Shown: piece after piece, positions 32,571-45,955 of the stretch
How the letters are laid out: each line of letters begins with the position of its first letter
Numbering within the stretch: position 1 is the stretch's first letter
Assembly: GCA_948567375.1 (NCBI GenBank)
Contig: OX419760.1
Location: 10,664,001-10,728,000, forward strand
Source of the DNA: Lunularia cruciata
Taxonomy: Eukaryota; Streptophyta; Marchantiopsida; Lunulariales; Lunulariaceae
Length of the DNA: 64,000 nt
Direction of reading: 5' to 3'
Position numbers and translations under genes: made by a program
Notes under the pieces: model-generated
Told to the model about the DNA's origin: nothing
Databases searched by the model: none
What the model saw: the letters and a program-made list of their open reading frames with translations, nothing else

Positions 32571-32766
32571 TGTTAAATTAGGTAATCTCTAGTTTAGAGA
32601 CTTTTTGTTAGAATCAGACAAAATAGATATTGTTCATGGGCAAACACTGTTCACATGCTTTCCATGAGCTATATGTGTTACATGAGCACTATCGTAGCAC
32701 ACCCTTCAGCACACCTTTCAGTACACCCTTTAGCACACCTGTCAGTACACCTTTTAACACACCTTT
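32571..32766 (+). repeat. 3' LTR of copia-1, part before the gypsy insertion
   Basis: It starts TGTTAAATTAGGTAATC after the purine tract. Near its end (32695-32766) a 12-13 bp phrase (agcacacctttc and variants) is repeated about six times. The 5' LTR has only one such phrase, so the array expanded in this copy. The gypsy element sits within this array. Confidence 0.85.
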
Positions 32767-33216
32767 TGTCACGCCATTTGTAGTTCCGCATCTAGATGCT
32801 CGGACACTGGAGTTCCAGTGATGGTAGTTAGAGTTATTCTAGCAGTTTCTCAGGGACTACTTTCTGATGGTTAGATTTTGTGTTCGGGGTACTGACTTCA
32901 CGGTGGGGCCCACCGTCACTTTGCACCGTTTGCACCGTCGAGTGTGCCGTCAGCGGGACCGTTAGGGTTTCAGGGCTAGCTCGAGTCCAAGGGGTATAGT
33001 TTCGAAGGTGAGCTCCAGAGAGCTCACTTCTCTGATGTTGAGCCTTCGAGTTCCTGGCTATGGTGGATAGAGGCCGGCGAGCGTCACCTGGATTCTCTAT
33101 GCTTGAGTGGGTGTGGCTTGACTGTAATCAGTGCCCAATTGTTGGCAGTTTATAGAGTGACAGATCAAGTACTGATCTGAGTTGAGTTGAGTTGAAAGTG
33201 TTAAGCAATCTGATTA
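32767..33216 (+). repeat. gypsy LTR block Q, left copy (450 bp)
   Basis: It matches 42098-42547 with about five differences. It begins TGTCACGCC and ends ctgatta. The usual preceding LTR block (P) is missing here, and the internal leader follows directly. Confidence 0.9.
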
Positions 33217-34710
33217 CATCAAAGAAGTGAAGTCAGGGGGAAATCGGGTGCAGGAACGTTGAGTGTTGGTGGTATCTCCAAGCTCGGTGGATCGTGGTAG
33301 CTCGATTCAGGTTCTGTGTTTCCCTAGTGTGCAGAAGCTCGTGTAGTTGATGCAAATTTGGCAGTTAGGCGGACGGTATGCGGAAGCGCTGGCCAAATTT
33401 CGAGCAAAGAAGGAGCAATTTTCGAGCAGTGTTGTGATTTTGAGCTCAGGAGGTGAAGGCAGGACCAATTTGCTGCGAGTTGGGCTCAGAAAGTGAAATT
33501 GAAGGTGGAGTTGGAAAGCTCTTCTCATGAAATTGTGATTTGGAAAAACCCGTTTTGTCAATTTGGCTCGAGTGGAAAGTTAGCGGGGGATTTGGCGGAC
33601 ATCCATCTTTAGGGTTTATGTCAGATTTACATCAGATTTTTGGGCCAGAATTGGAGGAGTTTCGCTGTTTGGCCAGATTTGGAGAAGTTTCGCTAGTTTG
33701 GAGGAGTTTCGCAGATTTGGAGAAGTTTTGCCAATTTTGGAGGAGGTTCGAAGTGGCAACAAGAAAGGCCTCATTTGGCTGAATTTCGGCATTTAGAGGC
33801 TTCGAGGCATAAGGCTGTGGGCTATGAGAGGCTACGAAGGCCTAGAAGGGCCAGCAAGCCAGCTTGCTGGCATGAGGCTAGCTAGTTTAGTGTAGATCTT
33901 GGTCATTGGTTGGCAAAATCTGCCTTTCTTGCTAGATTGTGCGCAACAGGGTTTGACCCCTAGATCTCTTGTTCCTAGACTGGTGCCCTAGCCAACTGGT
34001 CCACCCTCACTTGTTGTCATAGTGACTGTGCCATTGTTATCTATACACATGTAGCTTTGGCTAGGAGAGGCAGTTTGATCCCATTCTTGGTGATCCTGGT
34101 AGCTTAGGACTTAGATACGAACTACTCTTATGTCAAATGTCAAATGGTGGCAGAGTCAGTCCCGTGTTGTGTTATGAGATGGAGGGTTTTCATTTAGATT
34201 TCTTGTGATTGGATCCCCTTCATTCTCTACTTCCTGTTTGTGCACCACGTTTGTGTGAGGTGCCTTGACTTTTGAGCGTTGGTGCTCTGGTGTGCTCTCG
34301 GTGGTGAGGCTAGAGTGATGACCAGTCAGACTACCTTTGTTTCTCTCCGGTGAGGCAGGAAGTGATGACCTGCAGACCGTGAGAGTGCGTGTTATGATGG
34401 CAGGTTACAGGTTGCCCTTCCCCTAGTGTAGTTATCTCGGTAGAGTTACATTAGTGGGTGGTGTTTAGTTGGTGTTGGCACGTGGTGGTGTTGGCACTTG
34501 GTGGGGTACTTGCGGTTGCGACTTGCGGTTGCAGTTGGTGGTTCGGGTTTGCTGTTGCAGTTACGTGGTCACGACGGAGTTCTTTGGAGATTCCAGAGGA
34601 GTTAGCCCTGCAGTACGCAGTGGGTTTACTCGGACTCTGAGTTGGAGTTCGACACAGGAGCTAATTCAGTTGAGAGTGCACTTGGTGTGTCCGCACCGTT
34701 GTTGTGGGAC
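33217..34710 (+). other. gypsy 5' leader, no gene
   Basis: About 1.5 kb between the left LTR block and gag. No canonical primer site lies at the block end. The nearest resemblance to the initiator-Met site is tggtatctcc near 33270. A short phrase (tttggagaagtttcgc and variants) is repeated about four times at 33650-33750. Frames at 34458-35071 other than gag are shadows. Confidence 0.55.
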
Positions 34711-36213
34711 ATGGACGAGATTTATGGGGCCTCCAAAGGCCCTAGGCGTTACTCTGGTACAGTGGGTACTATTGAGTTGGATGATTTCATCCAGGAGTTC
34801 GATAGTTGGTGTGATCTGCAGCAGATGCGGAACCCGACTTTGTTCACACCCTTCATGGCATGGAAGGGGTTGCTTCAGCACTTGGAGGGTCCACCGATGG
34901 ATGATTACCATGAGTTCAGGAGAGCTCATTTGGAGGAGATTGAGTTATGGAGACAGTATTGGTCTCCACACTATGTCTCCATCACTTCAGGCTCGGTGGC
35001 CAGGAGTAGATCGGCTGTACCTACGAGTTCTAGCTCGAGTAGTGTTGGTGGAGCTAGTGGAGGTGCACTAGCTAGAGATAGTGCTACTACGAGTGGAGGT
35101 ACCGCTGCAGGATGTGGTGTGGTACCGGGGTTTAACCCCATGGTGGAGTTCTTCCTATGTTTGAGGCAGAACTACCAGGGAGTACGGACTGACAAGTTGA
35201 GGAGCTTGCAGGAGTTCCAGCGGAAGGCTGGAGAGAGCCTACGCGAGGCATACACTCGCATGAGGCGGCTGATCAGTTTCACTCAGGGAGTTACTGAGGC
35301 CCAGGCAGTCCAGTTTTGGTATGGGATACTGGATAGGGAGTTGCGACGTAGAGTTCGTGATGCTACGTTGTTGCAGGCTACTTCGCCCACTTTGGCAGTA
35401 GTCTTTGGTTTGGCTGAGCGTATTGAGCTCAACATGGTGGAGGAGAGAGTGGTGACAGCTGGATTTGGTAGAGAGACCTCATCCACGGTTGCGACTTCTT
35501 CTAGAGTGCAGCAGAGTGCACCACGCCCAGTTGGTTTTCGAGGATAGGGTGGACAGCCCAGATCCTATGGAGCAAGTGGAGGGCCTAGTGGAGTTAGACC
35601 CTTACCCTCATTTTCGGGTCAACAGCAGCCAGTGAGTGGTGGTGTTGCTTGTTGGACTTGTGGTGGACCTCACCATAGGAGAGAGTGTACTCAGGGCAGC
35701 GGACCGGATACCTCTGGTGCATCACAGCCAGCACAGAGGCAGTGTGAGCATTGCCATAGATTTGGTCATACTAGTGACCGGTGTTTTGACCTACACCCGG
35801 AGTTACGGAGTGGTAGGGCTGCTATGACAGGTAGTAGAGGAGCTCCAGTTCATGGAGGACGAGGTGGTAGAGGTGGTGGTAGAGGATCTACACCTAGTAG
35901 GGGTGCAGTACCTGCCCTTACTTCTGACACAGCTATGGCTACTCGGATTGAGCAGTTGGAGCAGAGATTGGCTAGTATGGCTATTGCTCAGAGGAGATCA
36001 AATTCGGGTGCTGAGGCTTCCACCTCATATGCTGGTGATAGAGATGCTTTGGACTTCATGTGTGGAGTGGCACAGGTGGATGCATCTGCAGCAGTGACTA
36101 GGAGTGCAGTACGTGCTCCAGAGCCTAGAGGAGCATCAGTGGAGTTGGTTGGACCCACAGAGAGGAGAGGTTGGGAGACAGGTCAGACTTCCCCAATCTT
36201 TCACGCTATCTGA
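34711..36213 (+). pseudogene. gypsy gag with two zinc knuckles (one stop)
   Basis: The start is ATG 34711 (MDEIYGASKGPRRYSG). The capsid-like part around 35140-35440 reads FQRKAGESLREAYTRMRRL and LRRRVRDATLLQ, a Retrotrans_gag-type fold in wording. An in-frame TAG at 35545 interrupts it, and the same frame continues. Two zinc knuckles follow: CWTCGGPHHRREC (about 35650) and CEHCHRFGHTSDRC (about 35740, exact C-x2-C-x4-H-x4-C). A Gly/Arg-rich stretch (GGRGGRGGGRG) near 35860 should bind nucleic acid. The frame ends at 36213, overlapping the pol frame. Confidence 0.85.
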
Positions 36214-37408
36214 GGCATTGCAGACGACATCCATGGTTCCTAGACGTCCCAGTGCAGGTGTGGTAGGTGGTGATGGAGTACCTGATGGAGTACCTGCTAG
36301 TCAGCCACCTGCTACTACACAGACTGAGTCTAGCATGATGTTGGGGGCGGCTCAGCTGATTATGTGGCATCCTTTATTTTCAGCCAGTGACATGTTTACA
36401 TTGGGAGTTGACCCAGCCCCAGTGTTCCGGTTGGCTGCCACGTTGTGTGAGAGTAGGGATGGTGCAGTTCCTACTACTAAAGCAGAGGTGGTTGGTAGTG
36501 GAGCTGACTTGGTTGAGGAGCATGGGATCCGTTCAGCGACCAGTGGTTTATGGCAAGCAGCAGCGGCTAGACTAGAGGAGTTGCCAGCTAGACCGGCCTT
36601 TGAGAGAGCGCGGTTTACACCTGGTGTTGTCCTATTGGATAACCAGAGGGGGATCTTTCGTTTGGTGGGACCTTCAGGGAAGGTCTATACACCACAGAGA
36701 GTCTTGTTAGACTCTGGTGCGCAGCCCCTTATGTTGGGGAAGGCTGCAGTTGTTGGTCTGGAGTTACGGAAGACCGATGTGGAGAGGTGTCCATTTCAGA
36801 TCCAGACATCTCTAGGTGGTGGTTCGACACAGTACATCACACGTGGGGAGCTTGTTGTCCAGGTTCAGCCTGGTCATCCGACTGATAGCTCGGTGGTGAG
36901 AGCTCAGGCTATTGCGACGATAGCTGAGTCATATGATGTGCTAGTTGGGGGAGCAGTGTTATACCCTATGGGTTTCAGTATTGACTATTGGGAGGAGACA
37001 GCCTCTTATAGACCTGGTTGGCAGTCTGGTGAGGGACGGGTATGTTGCCTACCAGTACGTTTTAGTAGTGGCAGTCTTGGCTCACTACAGTCCGGGACCA
37101 TGGCAGCATCAGTTTTGGCTTTCAGCGGTGCAGTTACTTGGCCTGGTGACTTGTTGGAGGGGAACGCCCATGCAGAGGATACTCCAGTACCAGAGGAGAT
37201 CACTCGGCTATGGAGTACGAGTGGGATTGTTCCATCCACCTTGGATGTTCCATTGTGGAGTTCAGAGGAGGCATTGCAGCATCATGCAGATCAGTTGGTG
37301 CAGCAGGCTTGGAGTGGAGCCTTCGTACCATCAGGGGATGAGTGTGAGGATGAGCCTCCAGAGGCGATTGCTTTGACACCTCTGGATACCACACTCATTG
37401 CTTGGTAG
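36098..37408 (+). pseudogene. gypsy aspartic protease region of pol
   Basis: This frame is +1 relative to gag and open from 36098, overlapping gag by about 116 nt. The protease motif is RVLLDSGAQPLMLG, with the catalytic Asp codon at 36710-36712, followed by a flap-like segment and the VLVGGAVLYPMG strand. It would cut the polyprotein into its parts. About 170 residues precede the motif and are unassigned (linker rich in Pro, Gly and Thr). A TAG at 37406 separates it from the methyltransferase, and the same frame then continues. Confidence 0.82.
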
Positions 37409-38707
37409 TACCCAGTAGAGGGGATATGCCTATTGGAGTTGTTTGGTGGGATCAGCACCGGACTAGTTGCGGTGTTACAGGCGGGTATCCGAGTACAGAG
37501 GTACTTGTATGTAGAGAGAGATGAGACTGCTAGGCGAGTCTCTCTACATCATGTGGCACACTTGGCCTATCGGTATCCGGAGTTATTACCGATGTTAGCA
37601 GTCAGAGGTTACCAGAAGGCCTTACCAGGAGACATTTCCTTACTGGGGGCGCATGACCTAGAGAGACATGGGCCTGTTCACTTGGTGATTTCTGGATGGC
37701 CATGTCAGGGACATACACGTGCGGGCCGCGGTTTGGGTCTTCAAGATCCTCGTTCTGGTGTGTTTTGGGAGATGTTACGGATATTACAACATCTCCAGGT
37801 TCATTAGTCTATTTCTCCAGCTTACCTTTTGGAGAACATTCCATTGATGGGTGATTCTCGCACTAGAGTGGTGGCGAGTACACATCAGGTCCATTCATGG
37901 ATGGGACCTGCTGTATTGTTAGATGCAGCCAGAGTGGGATCACGGGCTCATCGTCTTCGTCTTTGGTGGACAAACCTCTTACCCAGAGAGGTTCTACAGC
38001 GTGCTTATGATGGGATTCAGCGACTAGACCACATTCTTGTTGATGATATCTTGGATGTTGGGCGTCAGTCTCAGACAGTGGTAGTGGCTGATAGGTCACC
38101 CATGGCAGTGGTGAACCTAGTTGGACAGCCTAGAGCTGCATTTCCCACACTCATGAGTTTCCCAGGCTCTCATGCTTTTCGAGAGGGAGGACCTGCACTT
38201 GTTTGGGACTCACAGTTACAGCAGTTGGTGGAGCCCAATGCTGATGAGAGAGAGCGGGCGATGGGTTTTCGCACCGGTATTACCGCTGTTCCAGCAGTGT
38301 CAGAGGCATCTAGGCATCAGGTGTTAGGTCAGGCTATGGACCTGAACTGTTTGACCTGGATTGTGAGCCTTGGTTTGGTAGAGCAGCATAGGATGCGCTT
38401 GATAGGCATCACCACTCGGACACTTGTGAGCCCTGTGCCTATCGAGACGATTCAGGCACATGCTGGGGGCGATGGACCGAGTGGACATGGTATTCTTGGG
38501 ACACATCCAGTAGCTACTAGGGAGAGTGGTCTACTTGGAGTCCATCCAGGTGAGCATGGGCTACTTGGATTACACCCTTGGTCCACATGGGATGCAGCCA
38601 GAGGACGTATGGAGCTTGCAGCCAGAGTGGAGGGAGTTTTTCACACAGAGGTTGGGAGCTCTAGTGGTCGGGAGCATGACACCATTGCTCCCAAGGGCCC
38701 AGTGTAG
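37409..38707 (+). pseudogene. DNMT3-like cytosine-5 DNA methyltransferase domain inside gypsy pol (one internal stop)
   Basis: Sequence shows motif I LLELFGGISTGL followed by VLQAGI; a GPVHLVISGWPCQGHTRAG segment with the motif IV catalytic Cys codon at 37703-37705; motif VI LLENIPL with the Glu codon at 37832-37834; motif VIII RAHRLRLWWTNL; and a C-terminal ERERAMGF and HQVLGQAMDL segment standing for motifs IX-X. Motif order and wording (LFGGISTGL..L..GI; AHR.R..W.NL) resemble DNMT3/DRM-type de novo enzymes more than DNMT1. Known role of the family: transfer of methyl from S-adenosylmethionine to cytosine C5. A TAG at 37805 lies between motifs IV and VI and another ends the segment at 38705, all in one frame. 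After the domain comes an LGxHP triplet repeat (about 38490-38580). It sits between protease and RT, so it would be made as part of Pol. Confidence 0.85.
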
Positions 38708-41416
38708 CAGCCAGTCAGTACGTCTTCCACTCCTACTACAGTTACAGAGGATACTTGGGAGCCAGATCTTGGACCCAAGCTTACTGGAGAGGAAAGACGG
38801 AGGGTTTGGAGGTTCTTGAGGAGTCACACGAGTTGTTTTGCCTTCAGTATGAAGGATTTGGGTGCTCTGAAGGGACCTGGTATACGGATTGAGCTGACTA
38901 GCGACACACCTGTTTTCTGACGTCCTTATCGATATAGTGAGATGGAGAGGACATTGAGTCAGAGCCGGAGTAGTGACCTTTTTGAGGCTGGTTTGGTGGA
39001 GATTTCACATGGAGAGTATGCATCAGCGACAGTGATGCCAGCCAAGAAGGATATGCATGGCAACTATACAGATAGGCGGATGTGTGGAGATTACCGTCCT
39101 ATCAACCGACAGACCAGGGCTGATCGGTATGCCATGCCTACACCGGAGGAGATTTTTGATGCGATTGGGCATGCAAAGGTCTTCAGTACTTTGGATCTAC
39201 GAGCGGGATATCATCAGTTGCCGATCAGGGAGGAGGATAAGTCCAAGACAGCATTTTGGGCTATTGATCCTCACGGCAAGGATGTGTTATATCAGTGGAG
39301 GTTCTTACCATTTGGGTTGAAGAACGCTCCTGCTGAGTTCCAGAGGGTCATGGATAGGATCCTAGCTGGACTGGATTTTGCTCGGTGCTATATTGATGAC
39401 ATTTTGGTGTATAGCACTACTGTGGAGGAGCATGAGCGACAGTTGTTGGAGGTGTTTGAGAGGTTGAGATCTCATGGACTCAAACTACATCCTGGGAAGT
39501 GTAGGTTCTTCCACGAGCAGGTTGAGTATTTGGGTCACACTATCTACCCCAGAGGACTTGCTGTCCAGCAGACCAAGGTGGAGGCTATTGCACGTATTCC
39601 TCGGCCTACGGATGTGAGCAGAGTGCGAGCATTCCTTGGGTTGGCGAACTTCTATCGCCGCTATGTTAGAGGATTTAGTGCCATTGCCAAGGCCTTGACG
39701 AAGCTGACCAAGCTTACACAGGAGTGGTGGTGGGGAGATGAGCAGGAGAGAGCTTTTGTAGAGCTCAAGGAGAGGTTGACATCTGCTCCTATTTTGAGGA
39801 GACCGATCAGGGGACGACCATTTCAGGTTCACACTGATTGGAGTATGTTGGGGCTTGGAGCGGTGCTCACCCAGCATGATGATGAGGAGAAGGAGTTTGT
39901 GGTGGCCTATGCTAGTTGCTCCAACAATTCAGCGGAGGCAAAGTATAGTTCATATGAGGGAGAGTGCTTGGCAGCAGTTTGGGCAGTAGCACATTTCCGA
40001 TGTTACCTATTTGGTAACCCCTTCACTCTCATCACTGATCATCAGCCGCTGAAGTGGTTGATGGAGTCCGACAAGCTTTCAGGGAAGCTTGCACGATGGG
40101 CTCTGATTTTACAGGAGTATGATTTCACGGTTGTTCACAGACCTGGAGTGGTGAACCGTGATGCAGATGGGTTGAGTAGAAACCCATGTCCCAGCCAGCA
40201 GGATCAGACCGGAGCACGTTGGCATGGTGAGACAGATGAGGAGATGGTGCCAGGTTGGCATGCATCAGCCTTTCTGTGTATATTTGCAGAGACATTGGTG
40301 GTATCTCTCTCAGCGCATACAGGAGGAGTTATTGAGGTCACAGATCCAGAGAGTGAAGATATTGGTACAGTTCAGCGAGACATTCATGATGATGTCTTAG
40401 TGATGGACTATCTTCGCACTGGTGTTGTGGGTGGCACAATTGGGGCCAAGGAGAGAGACCGTGTTCTTCAACGAGCCAGACGGTTCAGATTGGAGGGTAG
40501 ACACCTTTTGCGTGTATGGGAGGATGGTAGAGTGCGAGTAGTACCACTTCCATCACAAAGACCACAGTTGGTCCGTCATGCTCATGAGGAGCTAGGACAT
40601 TTTGGAGTAAAGCGTACATATAGCTTACTCCAGAGTCATTATTGGTGGTGCGGTATGCAGACCGAGGTACAGCAGTTTGTTGCCAGATGTGTGGTTTGTG
40701 ACCGAGTTAGAGCATCATTCAATGCTCCTACGCCACAGTTACACCCATTACCTATCATGGGATTGGGTTACCGTTGGAGTTTGGACTTTGCCAGACCTTT
40801 ACCGCTGACTGTGAGACATCATCGGTATGTTTTGGTGATGGTGGAGCACTTCTCCAAGTGGATTGAGTTGGTGGCACTTCCTGACAAGTCTAGTGAAGGG
40901 ACAGCTTACTCGTTCCTGGATCGAGTTCTTAGTCATTTTGGTGCACCAGTTGAGGTTTTGACTGATCAGGGTACAGAGTTCTTGGGAGAGTTTCAGGTCT
41001 TATGTGACAAGGCTTTGATTGATCATCGTACTACATCTCGAGATCACCCTGAGGCAGATGGCTTAGCAGAGAGAGTGGTTCAGACGGTGAAGAGAGGATT
41101 GCGAAAGTATGGTTTGCAGAGAGGCCACTTGGGAGATTGGGATCTCCAGTTACCTTGGTTGGCCATGGGCTATCGGTTCAGCCGGCAAGCCTCCTTAGCA
41201 TCCTTCTCTCCATACTTTCTACTCTATGGACGAGATCCAGATTTACCTGCAGCCATTTGTCGAGATGCTACTATAGTTTTGGACTTGGATGACCCTGATG
41301 TATGGATGAGCGCATGTTCTCAACGGGCAGAGATCTTTCAGAGAGTGATGCCGATGGCCTTCGAGAACTTGGTAATTGCTCAGCATAGAGATACTTTACG
41401 TTATGCTACCATTTGA
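38708..41416 (+). CDS. gypsy reverse transcriptase, RNase H and integrase
   Basis: From ATG 38942 the frame is open for 824 residues. The same frame is also readable from 38708, with one TGA at 38918. RT: STLDLRAGYHQLPI, FLPFGLKNAPAEFQ and the active site YIDD at residues 150-153. RNase H: VHTDWSMLGLGAVL, YEGECLAAVW and TDHQPLKWLM. Integrase: an H2C2 zinc site (HAHEELGHFG...CVVCDR), then DDE residues in WSLDFA, LTDQGTEF and HPEADGLAERVVQ. All catalytic residues are present. The frame ends with TGA at 41414 and coding sense resumes in frame behind it. This is the best preserved pol in the window. Confidence 0.93.
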
Positions 41417-41821
41417 GGAGGAGGTTATAGACCCTCGATCCGTCGATTTCATCCAGGCGACTATGTATATCTACAACAGACAGCACCGACGACACTTGAT
41501 GTTTCTACAGGCCGCACTATCTTGAGAGTGCGCGAGGTTTTGCCATCTGGAGTCCTTGTGTTAGAAGGACGTGATGGTGTTGTTTGGAAGGATCATGTGC
41601 ACAATTGTGCGCCATGCCACCTCCCAAACATTGATGGTACTATGGACCCAAGCTTGGCACTTGTACGTGCAGGCTTGAGGTGTATGTTATGTGGCTCTTC
41701 TGGTGGAGCTGCTACTATGTTAGTGTGTGATAGTTGTTCGAGAGGATGGCATATGGCATGTATGACTCCTCCCCTCACGGTGGTTCCTCAGGGACAGTGG
41801 TTATGTCCTAGATGTACTTGA
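41417..41821 (+). pseudogene. Integrase tail and C-terminal PHD finger of the gypsy element
   Basis: In frame with pol after the TGA at 41414. The first part (RRFHPGDYVYLQQ, then VREVLPSGVLVLEGRDG) is the usual post-integrase SH3-like segment. The last 48 residues (about 41678-41818) form a C4HC3 PHD finger: CMLC, CDSC, GWHMAC and CPRC, with the conserved Trp before the last pair (GQWLC). PHD fingers of this kind bind histone H3 tails; in this position chromoviruses usually carry a chromodomain. The inferred role is target-site choice. The natural stop TGA is at 41819-41821. Confidence 0.85.
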
Positions 41822-41976
41822 CCTATAGCTAGTTCATTCTTTATATGGTATAGATTGCAGACAGGTGACTAACGATGGGGCTCCATAGCACCCGGCCTCC
41901 TGATCTTTGCCCATTAGAGGGTATACCATATACTTAGAGTAGATGGCTATTTGGAGTTAGAGGGACCTAACCGCCA

Positions 41977-41990
41977 GCTAGGGGGGCGAT
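41977..41990 (+). promoter_or_regulatory. Polypurine tract of the gypsy element
   Basis: The string ctaggggggcgat lies directly before block P (TGTGGCACTTT). This is the position and composition expected for the plus-strand primer, and it argues that the functional LTR begins with block P at 41991. Confidence 0.7.
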
Positions 41991-42095
41991 TGTGGCACTT
42001 TAGAGTCTATGTATGACTTATGTGTGAGTTGTGCTTTTATAGTGTATGATGTTGACAGCGATGTATGTTGTGTAGCGATGTATATACGCACGACA
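41991..42095 (+). repeat. gypsy LTR block P, first copy (105 bp)
   Basis: TGTGGCACTTT to cgcacgaca, repeated at 42549-42653 with one difference. It is separated from block Q by gc, which creates the 10-bp palindrome GACAGCTGTC at 42092-42101. Confidence 0.9.
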
Positions 42096-42097
42096 GC

Positions 42098-42547
42098 TGT
42101 CACGCCATTTGTAGTTCCGCATCTAGATGCTCGGACACTGGAGTTCCAGTGATGGTAATTAGAGTTATTCTAGCAGTTTCTCAGGGACTACTTTCCGATG
42201 GTTAGATTTTGTGTTCGGGGTACTGACTTCACGGTGGGGCCCACCGTCACTTTGCACCATTTGCACCGTCGAGTGTGCCGTCAGCGGGACCGTTAGGGTT
42301 TCAGGGCTAGCTCGAGTCCAAGGGGTATAGTTTCGAAGGTGAGCTCCAGAGAGCTCACTTCTCTGATGTTGAGCCTTCGAGTTCCTGGCTATGGTGGACA
42401 GAGGCCGGCGAGCGTCACCTGGATTCTCTATGCTTGAGTGGGTGTGGCTTGACTGTAATCAGTGCCCAGTTGTTGGCAGTTTATAGAGTGACAGATCAAG
42501 TACTGATCTGAGTTGAGTTGAGTTGAAAGTGTTAAGCAATCTGATTA
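42098..42547 (+). repeat. gypsy LTR block Q, right copy (450 bp)
   Basis: It matches 32767-33216 at about 99 percent. Together with the preceding block P it makes a 557-bp unit (41991-42547) that looks like one whole LTR. Confidence 0.9.
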
Positions 42548-42548
42548 T

Positions 42549-42653
42549 TGTGGCACTTTAGAGTCTATGTATGACTTATGTGTGAGTTGTGTTTTTATAG
42601 TGTATGATGTTGACAGCGATGTATGTTGTGTAGCGATGTATATACGCACGACA
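42549..42653 (+). repeat. gypsy LTR block P, second copy (105 bp)
   Basis: A repeat of 41991-42095 joined to the end of block Q through ctgattaT. It ends GACA at 42653, after which copia-1 LTR sequence resumes. Confidence 0.9.
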
Positions 42654-42932
42654 CTTTCAATACACTCTTCTATCTATATAATCCCAGTCAGGAGTTTCTT
42701 CTAATGGGGTTGAATTCTAGCACTTCCTCTCTGCATTTCGTGAAGTCTTGAGCTGCCTAACACCATCTCAGGAGTGTTCTGTATTGGAGTTTTGTATCTC
42801 AGTATTGGAGGTTATTTGTGCTACGTGAGTGAACTGGTTGTACTGTCTTTGAAGGCTAGGAGAGAGTTGAATCTTTCTGCGTGCAATTAGGAGTGTATGC
42901 TCTGGTGAGACTAGGGAAGTTGAGTGTTAGGA
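42654..42932 (+). repeat. copia-1 LTR continued after the gypsy insertion, plus gag leader
   Basis: It resumes ctttcaatacactcttctat, matching the 5' LTR near 28050, and continues through the LTR end into the untranslated gag leader seen at 28258-28302. This is what follows a 5' LTR, not a 3' LTR. Confidence 0.85.
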
Positions 42933-43270: not shown

Positions 43271-45955
43271 TCAGTCCCTATATCGAGCCAAAAACTCAAG
43301 CAACAACTGATTCACTTCCTCGTGCTTCTCAAAATGCATGAAGTGTCCACAATCATTTAGTTTTACGAACTTCTGCTGGTTTGGCAGAGCTGCTTTAACC
43401 GCTTCAGGATCACTTATGAACTCCGGAACACCAGGAAACCAGGTAACCATATCTCTGTCGGCGAGCACAGTCATGGCTGGAGTGTCTATAGGTTTACCCG
43501 CCCATGGAGCTCTCAGCTTAGAATTCCTGGTCAAAGTACCAGCAGACCACACAGATGTCAGAAACGCGATGGAACGAGCATAACAAGTGAGGTTGCATGA
43601 TTGTCCAAATAAACTCGTGTTCTACCGGAGTCTACCCTCTGAATAAAATACTCCATAACTACTTAAAGTGACATGCTAGTCTGCAGAGCCCATCCAGGAT
43701 ATACTGCAAAGTGCAAGATATAAGGAGACTACAGTGCTCAGAATGTAAGAAAGTACATGAATGAATTTTCTATTTCAGTCGATCATAGTGGCACGCAGTA
43801 GGTAATTATGTCTCCACAACCCTATGAGATAAAAGGTCGACAGTGCTATTATAAGTCATGCGGACGTACCAGGGAAAAAATTTACTGTACATTACCAGAT
43901 GACAGTACAGTAGATGATATAATATTTTGTGAGATCAGGCAATTCGTGATTGGGGTGGAAGACGTACTGGGTGATGGCGCGGTAGTGATTGAAACCACCC
44001 GTAAAGCCCGTCTTCTCGAAGGTTTCAACATAGTACTTCAAGTCCTCCTCGGACAAATACTCAGGAAGAGGATCATCAGCTTCATTTGGTGAAAAGTCGG
44101 GTACTGCGAGCGTCTTGCAGTCGTGCCACCTGAGGAGGAAGCTTTTCAGAACATTCGCAGTTGTTGCTTTCGCAAACAAGGCCTCCGCAACTCCTGGTTT
44201 CTGCGAAAGGTAGCCGCCCGTGTAAAAGGTAATGATAATCCCAACTTGATAATGGGGACTTCACTAAACAAGCCGGTAACTTGGGATCCAGTACCGAAGA
44301 GATTTCCTTATTCCCTTTAGAGATTCGCTCCAGAAGAAAGTCTCTTGACAGCACGTTCTCATTTCGACGACATCCGATACAATTTAACTTTTCTAAACAA
44401 TAGAGGTCAAATCATGTACGTTAAATGTAAAGTTTTATGCGTTCGGTTCAAGGTATTATTGCAGATGTATGAAGTCCTGCACCAGTTTTAAAGGTGAAGG
44501 TTTCACTGATATGTACGCTTAAGCATAGTAAATGGACCATCAATCATCAATCATCAATCCACATATGTCAAGAACTACACGCACCTGGAACTGGTTGATG
44601 TAGAAGTGTTCACCAACTTCCTTTGTGCTGTCAAGTAATGAACCTTGGAAACGACCAGCGTTTATGTATGGTACGGACAGGAACACAACTGCTTTCACAC
44701 GGTCAGGTCTCATATGGCAAATATCACCGGCGTAGACAGCACCCCAATCATGTCCAACCACCACAGCCTGGAACAAAATCAAGTTCACATTCCGTCAAAA
44801 TGTGACCTGTCTTGAGTGCAGTTTGCACAAGAATTAGAATGCATAAATCCTAACAACTCGACTGGTTATTATGATGCTTCTCATCCGCTCTCTCAGCTTT
44901 CACAGGAGAGCTCCAAACATAAAATGCCTGTCATTGCGCACGAATTCACCACTATCTCCAACCTTCACTTTTCAGGAGCCGACTTGTTGCGATTATCTCA
45001 AAATTTCACCAAGGATCTAAGAACCCCCTCCAAAGAGGAGTCATAATCTGTTCATAGTTGGTAGAACGATTACTGGCTTCGGAGCTGAACTCCTATTATC
45101 TGGTGACCATAATTACAAGTGGGAAAAAGGGCAGTACTGCACACGAACGCCTGGTGTAGGCTTAAAGCATCTACCTGCTTCACTTCTAAAAGGTCCAACA
45201 ACGCTATGAAGTCTCCAACTTCATGAAGGGGCGTATACTGATCCACAGTTTCAGGTATTTCGCTTTCACCAAAGCCGCGTAGGTCCGGAACCACCACGTG
45301 GTACCCTGCATTAGCCAAAGCTGGAATCTGGTAGCGGTAGCTGTACCAAAAGTCGGGGAATCCATGTAGCAACAAGACAGTCGGTCCTGGTCAATGCGAA
45401 ACAAGTTGAAGTCCATGACTTCCCAATTAGTAGGAAACAAAGAATGATCTTGAGATACTTCGAAATTTTTTGGCAATTCTGCACGTAACGTGGACTCTTA
45501 AGGCAGATTTATGGGAATTAGTCTCTGGAAGAATCAAGATCATAAATCCAACAGAAACTGAGCCTAGGTTGATGTTGTAATCTCTGTGTGACAATCATGC
45601 TGCAGATCGAAACAAATCCTTCCGTCATGAGCTCTCTCAATAGTCATTTTCCTTGCATCAAATCGGTTGTCCTAGTAGCTGGTCAGGCCTGATATCTCCA
45701 GCTCTACACACTTTTATTTACCCGGGACCAGTGTATGGCATAAAACCAAGTGCATATCAGTGGAATTATATCCACCAACTGTTAATAGTACAGAGTGCAA
45801 CTGGTCTTCGAAGCAGTCACGACTCGCGATCTTGTTTCGAATCCCTGAGCAAATAACTAACCTGAGCCCATTTCAACGTAATGCAACTTGATGCCATTGG
45901 CCTCCACATAGTTCGACTTTGCTCCATTCACATGGGTCGACGCAAGCTGTGTCAT
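43271..45955 (-). CDS. Epoxide hydrolase 2 (alpha/beta hydrolase), five exons
   Basis: Exons (minus strand) 45955-45862, 45386-45175, 44767-44585, 44200-43968 and 43526-43271 join with GT-AG introns into 978 nt, giving 325 residues; phases close exactly. It has the same fold and chemistry as the paralogue at 24044-26746, hydrolysing epoxides to diols. The oxyanion HGFP lies in exon 2. The nucleophile is Asp109 in GHDWG, the acid Asp266 in ADRDM, the base His302 in GHFMH, and the lid tyrosines are Tyr158 (FYINQFQ) and Tyr236 (FNHYRA). All are intact. Intron positions are identical to gene 1, and exon lengths differ only in exons 1, 3, 4 and 5, by multiples of three. No targeting peptide is evident. 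The start at 45955 gives MTQLAST. Lid residues 186-215 differ most from gene 1, which could mean different substrates. Confidence 0.92.

What the first reader, a model, noticed from the sequence alone, without database searches (positions are those of the whole stretch)
37409..38707. Gypsy retrotransposon with a captured DNMT3-like cytosine methyltransferase between protease and RT
Motifs I, IV (catalytic Cys in WPCQG), VI (ENI), VIII and IX/X-like segments occur in family order, in frame with pol. Cytosine methyltransferases inside retrotransposons have been described in dinoflagellates and a charophyte alga, as far as I know. This one lies in a land-plant-type genome and looks DNMT3/DRM-like by wording. 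An element that methylates DNA could silence itself or relatives, shield its DNA from host recognition, or alter its insertion neighbourhood.
Basis: partly seen in the sequence, partly recalled or inferred. Interest (0 to 1): 0.93.

Follow-up and report, generated by a model that had tools for sequence, protein, structure and literature searches.

The report
Jumping gene carrying DNMT3-like DNA methylase
A very abundant retrotransposon in what looks like a bryophyte genome carries its own DNA-methylating enzyme, the kind of mark that hosts use to silence such elements, and related elements with this enzyme appear in other bryophytes and in green algae.

Summary
Confirmed and extended. Window 37409-38707 encodes a DNMT3-type cytosine methyltransferase (MTase), motifs in unrearranged order, between protease and reverse transcriptase of a Gypsy-type element (32767-42653, TSD CTTT). 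This copy is broken. It is no one-off insertion: a protein search scored 97 copies, all at least 97% identical, and the element's terminal-repeat junction occurs 2,038 times. In 35 of 35 distinct copies compared the MTase frame ends at the same UAG (34 in the leaky CARYYA context), so the MTase belongs to gag-protease-MTase, and RT-RNaseH-integrase-PHD would need read-through. Ends are not plain LTRs: integrated copies read B-internal-A-B-A, TG...CA, with 4-bp TSDs in 11 of 13, as if a two-LTR circle had been opened at an internal palindrome. Related elements occur in Marchantia, Calypogeia, Riccia, Sphagnum, two green algae and metagenomes; MTase and polymerase distances correlate, which suggests one old acquisition and a move within the polyprotein. 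The MTase is the best conserved ORF1 part in 15 of 17 comparisons. Closest known: KnitGypsy-Dnmt3 of Klebsormidium (2018). New here: land plants, apparent age, relocation, leaky stop, PHD reader, permuted ends. Methylation of its own cDNA is likely but untested.

The parts
32767..42653 (+). whole element, TG...CA, flanked by CTTT target-site duplications (32763-32766 and 42654-42657)
32767..33216 (+). repeat B1 (5' terminus); no A repeat follows it
33217..33221 (+). CATCA just inside B1 (primer-site side by position); the same 5 bases sit in the B2/A2 junction of 2 of the 100 listed places
34711..35700 (+). gag region
   Evidence: weak Retrotrans_gag hit 17.2 bits, below the cut-off 24.1; 97.6% to the open ORF of another copy
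35701..36030 (+). zinc-knuckle region (one CX2CX4HX4C and one near match, by eye)
36515..37294 (+). aspartic protease region (LLDSGAQP); this copy changes frame upstream of it
   Evidence: no Pfam hit here, but homologues P0017, P0147, P0149 carry PF13650
37409..38398 (+). DNMT3-type MTase core (catalytic WPCQG); private stop at 37805
38399..38704 (+). poorly conserved tail of ORF1
   Evidence: 29-47% identity or no match in P0121, P0122, P0124 (Marchantia) and P0001 (Calypogeia)
38705..38713 (+). TAG CAG CCA: shared stop of ORF1 in leaky-stop context
   Evidence: 35 of 35 distinct copies TAG; 32 TAGCAGCCA, 2 TAGCAGCTA, 1 TAGCAGCCT
39041..39700 (+). reverse transcriptase
   Evidence: RVT_1 E 4e-32
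39731..40120 (+). RNase H
   Evidence: RT_RNaseH E 1.6e-35
40511..41200 (+). integrase: H2C2 zinc-binding domain and rve core
   Evidence: PF17921 8.9e-18, PF00665 1.2e-12
41681..41815 (+). PHD finger at the C end of pol (an in-frame stop lies upstream at 41414 in this copy)
   Evidence: PF00628 E 1.1e-11
41978..41989 (+). CTAGGGGGGCGA, polypurine-tract-like, directly before A1
   Evidence: 7 of the 8 copies compared show this end, 6 identical and 1 with one change; the eighth lacks it in the fetched stretch
41990..42095 (+). repeat A1
42092..42101 (.). A1/B2 boundary, palindrome GACA-GC-TGTC: proposed joined-ends (att) site; the GC is absent at the outer ends
   Evidence: identical in 5 of 8 copies, one base changed in 1, not seen in 2
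42098..42547 (+). repeat B2 (5 differences in 450 from B1)
42548..42653 (+). repeat A2 (3' terminus)

Best explanation
SHOWN: a broken copy of a very abundant Gypsy-type retrotransposon whose ORF1 is gag, zinc knuckle, protease and DNMT3-type MTase, ended by a conserved UAG; in frame downstream come RT, RNase H, integrase and a PHD finger; the integrated form is B-internal-A-B-A with TG...CA ends and 4-bp TSDs in most copies tested. INFERRED: recent activity (near-identical copies); UAG read-through makes a minority of full polyprotein, so the MTase is made in Gag-like amounts and is packaged and cleaved out with Gag. In the particle or nucleus it methylates the element's double-stranded cDNA de novo, so new copies arrive carrying 5mC, while the PHD-bearing integrase reads chromatin. 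The likely gain is to look like the methylated repeat DNA of the host (tolerance) or to limit further activity of the new copy. The MTase was acquired once, long ago, with vertical inheritance or spread among green lineages, and has been kept by selection since. My confidence: structure about 0.95; selection for a retained function about 0.85; cDNA methylation as that function about 0.45.
For: Family. Copies: 97 scored of 15,225 candidates, each covering at least 431 of 432 residues, 64 without stops (one is the query itself); 40 of 40 listed DNA copies full length, 39 at 98% and the window itself at 100%. Shared UAG 35 of 35. ORF1 open for 1,330 aa from its first ATG in one copy. 15 unnamed ORFs of 1,228-1,451 aa (P0134-P0143, P0145-P0149) also end 80-140 aa after the MTase. 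Constraint: identity to Marchantia P0121 is 75% for the MTase, 63% gag, 57% protease, 49% zinc knuckle, 47% spacer; to P0135 it is 53% MTase, 43% protease, 23% gag; MTase highest among ORF1 parts in 15 of 17 comparisons. MTase and pol distances correlate: Mantel r 0.78, 0 of 20,000 permutations; 0.61 and 0 of 20,000 after dropping three close taxa. Ends. Enzymatic precedent: SymbioDIRS-Dnmt3 enzymes methylate CG de novo (PMC5890265, abstract and discussion).
Against: No activity, expression, particle or methylome data. The within-genome selection test was not significant (shared versus singleton changes, p 0.28, 0.20 and 0.08 at sharing of at least 2, 3 and 5 copies; the copies added there came from the score-ranked list). 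C>T decay at CG and CHG in the copies is what host MET1/CMT would also cause. Read-through is inferred from context only, and the stop is not universal in relatives: P0151 and P0171 run from MTase into RT in one ORF, as do some Marchantia gene models (P0124, P0125, P0129, P0133), which may be spliced predictions. 'MTase highest' fails in the two Sphagnum models P0018 and P0155. Some branches disagree between the trees (P0164; P0170/P0172). Non-MTase retrotransposons succeed without such an enzyme. No K. nitens protein turned up in my three protein searches.
Confidence: 0.7

Rival explanations
1. The MTase has lost catalysis and serves as a DNA- or RNA-binding or structural part of Gag (as DNMT3L does beside DNMT3A; recalled).
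For: The C-terminal half is divergent: Pfam covers only its profile positions 48-153 of 324, and the IX-X stretch scores only 4.0 bits in the best PDB match.
Against: WPCQG kept in 35 of 35 copies; EN(V/I) in 33 of 33; AHR.R..W.N region in 20 of 20, with one R to H change inside it; MTase highest among ORF1 parts in 15 of 17 cross-species comparisons.
Confidence: 0.15
2. The MTase acts on RNA (genomic RNA or the primer tRNA), not on DNA.
For: De Mendoza et al. raise RNA methylation for SymbioLINE-Dnmt, whose tested enzyme did not methylate DNA in yeast (PMC5890265, discussion).
Against: The profile ranks DNMT3 (2.8e-23) far above the tRNA-C38 MTases/DNMT2 (9.4e-6 and 1.4e-5).
Confidence: 0.1
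3. Separate captures in bryophytes, K. nitens and green algae, not one old acquisition.
For: De Mendoza et al. concluded an acquisition in the K. nitens lineage (PMC5890265, section 9); the MTase sits in two different places in the polyprotein; deep nodes are weak and P0164 and P0170/P0172 sit differently in the two trees.
Against: One edge (support 0.884) parts all element MTases sampled from the host DNMT3, DNMT3A and prokaryotic enzymes; MTase distances track pol; nine RNaseH-MTase-integrase elements form one clade in both trees (0.975 and 0.996).
Confidence: 0.15
4. The element MTase came from a phage or bacterial DNMT3-like enzyme, not from a host DNMT3 gene.
For: tblastn finds 333 phage records, best E 2e-15; in the tree the host DNMT3 and DNMT3A pair with phage enzymes (0.993), not with the element clade.
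Against: The PDB profile puts DNMT3A first, though few prokaryotic relatives have structures; plasmid matches are weak (10 records, best listed E 5e-5); the tree is unrooted with long branches.
Confidence: 0.2
5. The split repeats are a by-product of nesting or solo LTRs, and the element is an ordinary LTR element.
For: Two of 13 copies with both ends lack a TSD, and one of them lies in sequence of the same family; one copy (C10) has B2 but no A2 behind it.
Against: Same order and exact ends in independent copies; 11 of 13 have 4-bp TSDs; the B2/A2 junction occurs 2,038 times, reversed-pattern control 0.
Confidence: 0.04

Closest known systems
KnitGypsy-Dnmt3 of Klebsormidium nitens (de Mendoza et al. 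2018, PMC5890265; abstract, sections 9 and 11 and passages read)
   Same: Gypsy domains, unrearranged Dnmt3-type MTase without introns in the Pol ORF, repeats described as having the structure of a DIRS element, MTase under constraint (reported Ka/Ks < 0.2)
   Different: Charophyte alga, described as having fewer copies than Symbiodinium and as an acquisition in that lineage. Here: apparent land plant, 2,038 terminal junctions, MTase upstream of a conserved UAG, PHD finger (the paper's main text does not contain 'PHD'), ends resolved with TSDs, relatives under the names of a chlorophyte and a prasinophyte. No direct sequence comparison was possible.
SymbioDIRS-Dnmt3 and SymbioLINE-Dnmt of dinoflagellates (same paper)
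   Same: Retrotransposon-borne DNMT; the DIRS type has de novo CG activity
   Different: Tyrosine-recombinase or LINE machinery; here an rve integrase
DIRS/PAT/Ngaro split-direct-repeat elements (recalled)
   Same: Split direct repeats; circular intermediate proposed (recalled)
   Different: rve integrase, TG...CA ends and 4-bp TSDs here
Host DNMT3 gene (this genome, C7 near 31.99 Mb, MTase spread over at least two exons)
   Same: DNMT3 motif order
   Different: Intron-bearing; not close to the element enzyme
Chromoviruses (Gypsy with a chromodomain after integrase; recalled)
   Same: Chromatin-reader-type domain at the C end of pol
   Different: PHD finger, no chromodomain hit

Membership tests
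C5-cytosine MTase, DNMT3 family | PF00145 match above the gathering score | tested here: met
   26.1 bits window piece; 27.3-33.0 bits in four copies
C5-cytosine MTase, DNMT3 family | closest solved relatives are DNMT3A/B/C; unrearranged motif order | tested here: met
   DRM chains match only over profile positions 59-188; no chain named DNMT1 or CMT among the 59 at E up to 1
C5-cytosine MTase, DNMT3 family | groups with cellular DNMT3 in a tree | tested here: inconclusive
   element MTases form their own group; host DNMT3 and DNMT3A pair with phage enzymes
C5-cytosine MTase, DNMT3 family | de novo methyl transfer | not testable with these tools
   no bench data
DRM (domains rearranged MTase) | motifs VI-X before I-IV | tested here: not met
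   order I, IV, VI, VIII, IX/X
Gypsy (Ty3) LTR retrotransposons | PR-RT-RH-IN order with rve integrase | tested here: met
   (PR by homology and LLDSGAQP, not by a Pfam hit in the window)
Gypsy (Ty3) LTR retrotransposons | identical LTR at both ends of the integrated copy | tested here: not met
   5' end B, 3' end A-B-A
Gypsy (Ty3) LTR retrotransposons | TG...CA ends and short TSD | tested here: met
   4 bp in 11 of 13 copies with both ends
DIRS/PAT (tyrosine recombinase) | tyrosine recombinase, no TSD | tested here: not met
   rve found, no phage-integrase hit in the seven ORF pieces; TSDs present
DIRS/PAT (tyrosine recombinase) | split direct repeats | tested here: met
KnitGypsy-Dnmt3 lineage | Gypsy pol with Dnmt3 and DIRS-like repeats | tested here: met
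   feature by feature against the text of PMC5890265 section 9; figure not seen
KnitGypsy-Dnmt3 lineage | sequence kinship of MTase and RT with the K. nitens copies | not tested
   no K. nitens protein among the listed hits
Chromovirus | chromodomain after integrase | tested here: not met
   PHD only

The most novel reading that the evidence does not exclude
A lineage of Gypsy retrotransposons across green plants inserts from a circle. Reverse transcription makes an ordinary linear form with A-B repeats at both ends; its ends (B end at the primer side, A start at the polypurine tract) are joined to a two-LTR circle; integrase then opens the circle at an internal palindrome, GACA-GC-TGTC, the A|B boundary, and inserts B-internal-A-B-A with a 4-bp TSD. 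The element's own DNMT3, made in Gag-like amounts, methylates that circle before it inserts, and the PHD-integrase reads chromatin. Writer, reader and a circular integration substrate would all be encoded by one element.
Probability: 0.28. Interest if true: 0.92.

Novelty: new variant of a known kind. Interest (0 to 1): 0.74.

Why it matters
DNA methylation is how plants silence transposons. An element lineage that has kept its own de novo-type MTase over deep time, and still reached about 2,000 junctions in one genome, is the opposite of what silencing theory would lead one to expect. One 2018 paper is the main precedent that I found, and it treated the green-alga case as confined to that lineage. 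Relatives annotated in Marchantia polymorpha, a transformable model (recalled), make the old question 'why would a transposon methylate DNA?' directly testable. The permuted ends would, if read rightly, revive the idea of a circular integration substrate.

Tried and rejected
Rejected: one-off insertion; DRM-like; strand-biased CHH hypermutation (G>A 15 versus C>T 3 in the MTase alone, vanished over 4.3 kb; in that same call G>A exceeds C>T at CG sites, 40 of 119 against 21 of 120, p 0.005, which I leave unexplained); relatives in IMG/VR (28 pattern matches, none a relative); a tRNA-3'-end primer site directly after B1 (by eye no TGG there; 0 tRNA genes in the window). Inconclusive: selection from copies of one genome. 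Led nowhere: structure prediction (switched off), so no fold search was made; naming the organism (8 contigs of 60-85 Mb make 558 of 566 Mb,'s lengths; no tool gave a name; 'bryophyte' rests on the nearest named relatives). Papers: PMC5890265 abstract, sections 9 and 11 and passages; PMC12344493, PMC6453930, PMC8566409, PMC5784723, PMC12477816 passages only; all others search listings only. 'Not found in print' rests on searches in an open-licence library without most subscription journals.

Full report
1. The observation. The window (G000:C10:10664001-10728000) holds a 9,887-bp element, 32767-42653, between CTTT duplications. The piece 37409-37804 carries one Pfam family, DNA_methylase. Four of four other copies of the stretch pass the Pfam cut-off, and one matches DNMT3A first in the PDB, E 6.9e-10, with motifs I, IV, VI, VIII and a weak IX-X stretch in canonical order. 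A profile of 57 relatives ranks DNMT3A 2.8e-23, DNMT3C 6.4e-21, DNMT3B 8.6e-20, a 'DNA methyltransferase' (4onj, a plant DRM by recall) 1.6e-13 and DRM2 1e-10 (both over the first half only), HaeIII 1.5e-7, HhaI 3.6e-7, tRNA-C38 MTase/DNMT2 9.4e-6 and 1.4e-5; no chain named DNMT1 or CMT is among the 59 listed. Chance is excluded.

2. Copies. A DNA search lists 40 copies (40 scored of 5,634 candidates), all 1,299 of 1,299 bases: the window and 39 others at 98%. A protein search scored 97 of 15,225 candidates: all at 97% or more over at least 431 of 432 residues, 64 of 97 without an internal stop (ranked by score, so biased to open copies, and one is the query). The exact junction between two terminal repeats occurs at 2,038 places (974 + 1,064; the pattern read backwards 0); these places need not all carry a full element. 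So this is a large and, by its near-identity, young family. B1 and B2 differ by 0.9-2.9% within the seven copies measured, the window's own pair by 5 of 450.

3. ORF plan. In a natural copy ORF1 is open for 1,330 codons from its first ATG: gag, zinc knuckles, protease, MTase, tail. The stop behind the tail is TAG in 35 of 35 distinct copies, followed by CAGCCA (32), CAGCTA (2) or CAGCCT (1); no stop inside the MTase is shared by more than 3 of 35 (two more element copies, L005 and L006, were dropped because they did not match without gaps). UAG-CARYYA is the leaky context of tobacco mosaic virus (recalled; one search found no paper joining the terms). RT, RNase H, integrase and a PHD finger (E 1.1e-11) follow in the same frame. 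So the MTase should be made with Gag, and pol by read-through (inferred). Among relatives, 15 unnamed ORFs also end 80-140 aa after the MTase, but P0151 and P0171 run on into RT without a stop. The window copy is dead: frame change between the zinc-knuckle and protease regions, stops at 37406, 37805 and 38918 not seen in the other copies read there, and one at 41414 that was not checked in other copies.

4. Ends. The integrated order is B1 - internal - A1 - B2 - A2. Of 18 copies whose ends I looked at (window included), 13 show both ends; 11 of these have a 4-bp TSD next to TG...CA (CTTT in the window, then AAGG, ACTC, ACTT, TCAT, AAGT, ACAA, ATAT, ACTT, CCTT, TTCC) and 2 do not; 5 lack an end in the fetched stretch. 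A polypurine-like CTAGGGGGGCGA abuts A1 in 7 of the 8 copies (one with a base change; the eighth lacks that end). The A1/B2 boundary is a palindrome, GACA-GC-TGTC, identical in 5 of 8 copies, with one change in 1 and not seen in 2; its two middle bases are missing at the outer ends. I read A-GC-B as the LTR that reverse transcription makes, and the integrated form as a two-LTR circle opened at that palindrome. The model predicts that B2/A2 is a joint of cDNA ends: of the 100 listed junctions (of 2,038) 96 are exact, 2 have an extra A and 2 carry CATCA, the first five bases behind B1, as if primer-side bases had been kept. The two CATCA places may be siblings, so this is support, not proof.

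5. Relatives. Named sources: Marchantia polymorpha, Calypogeia fissa, Riccia sorocarpa, Sphagnum species, the prasinophyte Cymbomonas tetramitiformis and the chlorophyte Monoraphidium neglectum (one protein each, so contamination of those assemblies is not excluded); most others are unnamed. Of 62 proteins over 560 aa whose plan was printed, 15 have the MTase behind RNase H and/or directly before integrase, and 47 have it behind protease and/or before RT. PHD fingers recur at the end of pol in 8 of the 50 proteins by precomputed Pfam. For 19 elements with both parts, MTase and RT-RH-IN identities correlate (Mantel r 0.78, 0 of 20,000; after dropping three near relatives r 0.61, 0 of 20,000), and nine RNaseH-MTase-integrase elements are one clade in both trees (0.975 and 0.996). 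The trees also disagree in places: P0164 is next to the bryophyte elements by pol (0.997) but unresolved on a long branch by MTase, and P0170/P0172, deepest by pol with MTase-less P0173 outside, join the RNaseH-MTase-integrase clade by MTase (0.745). Since P0170/P0172 have the MTase before RT, I infer one acquisition and one later move, with moderate confidence. In a tree with host DNMT3, DNMT3A (part), three phage, two cyanobacterial-plasmid and two stand-alone enzymes, one edge (0.884) parts all element MTases sampled from the rest; the tree is unrooted, deep nodes are weak, and the donor is open.

6. Constraint. Between this plant and Marchantia P0121 the MTase is 75% identical, gag 63%, protease 57%, zinc knuckle 49%, spacer 47%, tail 47% over 36 aa; RT and RNase H to P0125/P0133 68-81%. 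Against P0135 the MTase keeps 53%, protease 43%, gag 23%. The MTase is the highest ORF1 part in 15 of 17 proteins compared; the exceptions are the Sphagnum models P0018 (protease 60.0 against 59.2) and P0155 (zinc knuckle 55 against 50). This argues for long selection on the MTase. Within the genome the test is weak: singletons 67 N, 45 S, 8 stops; shared by at least 5 copies 1 N, 4 S; Fisher p 0.08.

7. Methylation history. Among 323 singleton changes in 20 copies over 4.3 kb, C>T (or G>A) hits 61 of 239 CG, 121 of 509 CHG and 62 of 1,472 CHH sites. Inserted copies have thus probably been methylated at CG and CHG. Host enzymes suffice to explain it, so it does not show what the element's enzyme does.

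8. Known and new. De Mendoza et al. 2018 (PMC5890265) described Gypsy elements with Dnmt3 and DIRS-like repeats in Klebsormidium and DNMT-bearing DIRS and LINE elements in dinoflagellates, and reported CG activity for retrotransposon DNMTs. A 2025 DNMT survey (PMC12344493, passages seen) cites streptophyte and dinoflagellate cases from that paper. I therefore file this as a new variant of a known kind. Mechanism beyond the anatomy is inference: cDNA methylation 0.45; the novel case with circle integration 0.28.

Noticed in passing
window 41681-41815; P0156, P0157, P0159, P0161, P0162, P0164, P0165, P0169: PHD finger at the C end of pol recurs in MTase-bearing elements with both MTase positions; writer and possible reader travel together.
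   Followed up: partly
window 32767-42653: The element's plus strand is G- and T-rich (GC skew 0.21, AT skew -0.12; CpG O/E 0.49) against GC skew 0.08 and -0.06 in the window flanks; a strand bias of unknown cause.
   Followed up: no
20 copies L009-L028, 4.3 kb each: At CG sites singleton G>A (40 of 119) exceeds C>T (21 of 120), Fisher p 0.005, with no such bias at CHG or CHH.
   Followed up: no
L044, L045, L046 (phages muut, CRP-603, Epa40): Phage cytosine MTases match the element enzyme (tblastn E 2e-15, 5e-14, 1e-12) and pair with cellular DNMT3 in the tree.
   Followed up: partly
P0121, P0122, P0124, P0105 (Marchantia), P0058 (Riccia): Element ORFs sit in public proteomes as gene models (Mp_4g09160, Mp_8g17980, Mp_6g11220, Mp_7g09570, R1sor_014310) and can be mistaken for host DNMTs or PHD proteins.
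   Followed up: no
P0027: A protein from a bacterial MAG (Obscuribacterales), 51% identical to the element MTase on a contig of at most 2.4 kb, looks like retroelement contamination.
   Followed up: no
L029/L030 (C7 copy): This copy is flanked by sequence of the same family in reverse orientation: the element seems to insert into itself.
   Followed up: no
G000:C7 31986500-31993500 (L047); L004: Host DNMT3 gene with at least two MTase exons; a second DNMT3-like exon is at C1:51668693.
   Followed up: partly
window 43271-45500, minus strand: Exon-like pieces that read like an alpha/beta-hydrolase (epoxide-hydrolase-like) by eye; not searched.
   Followed up: no
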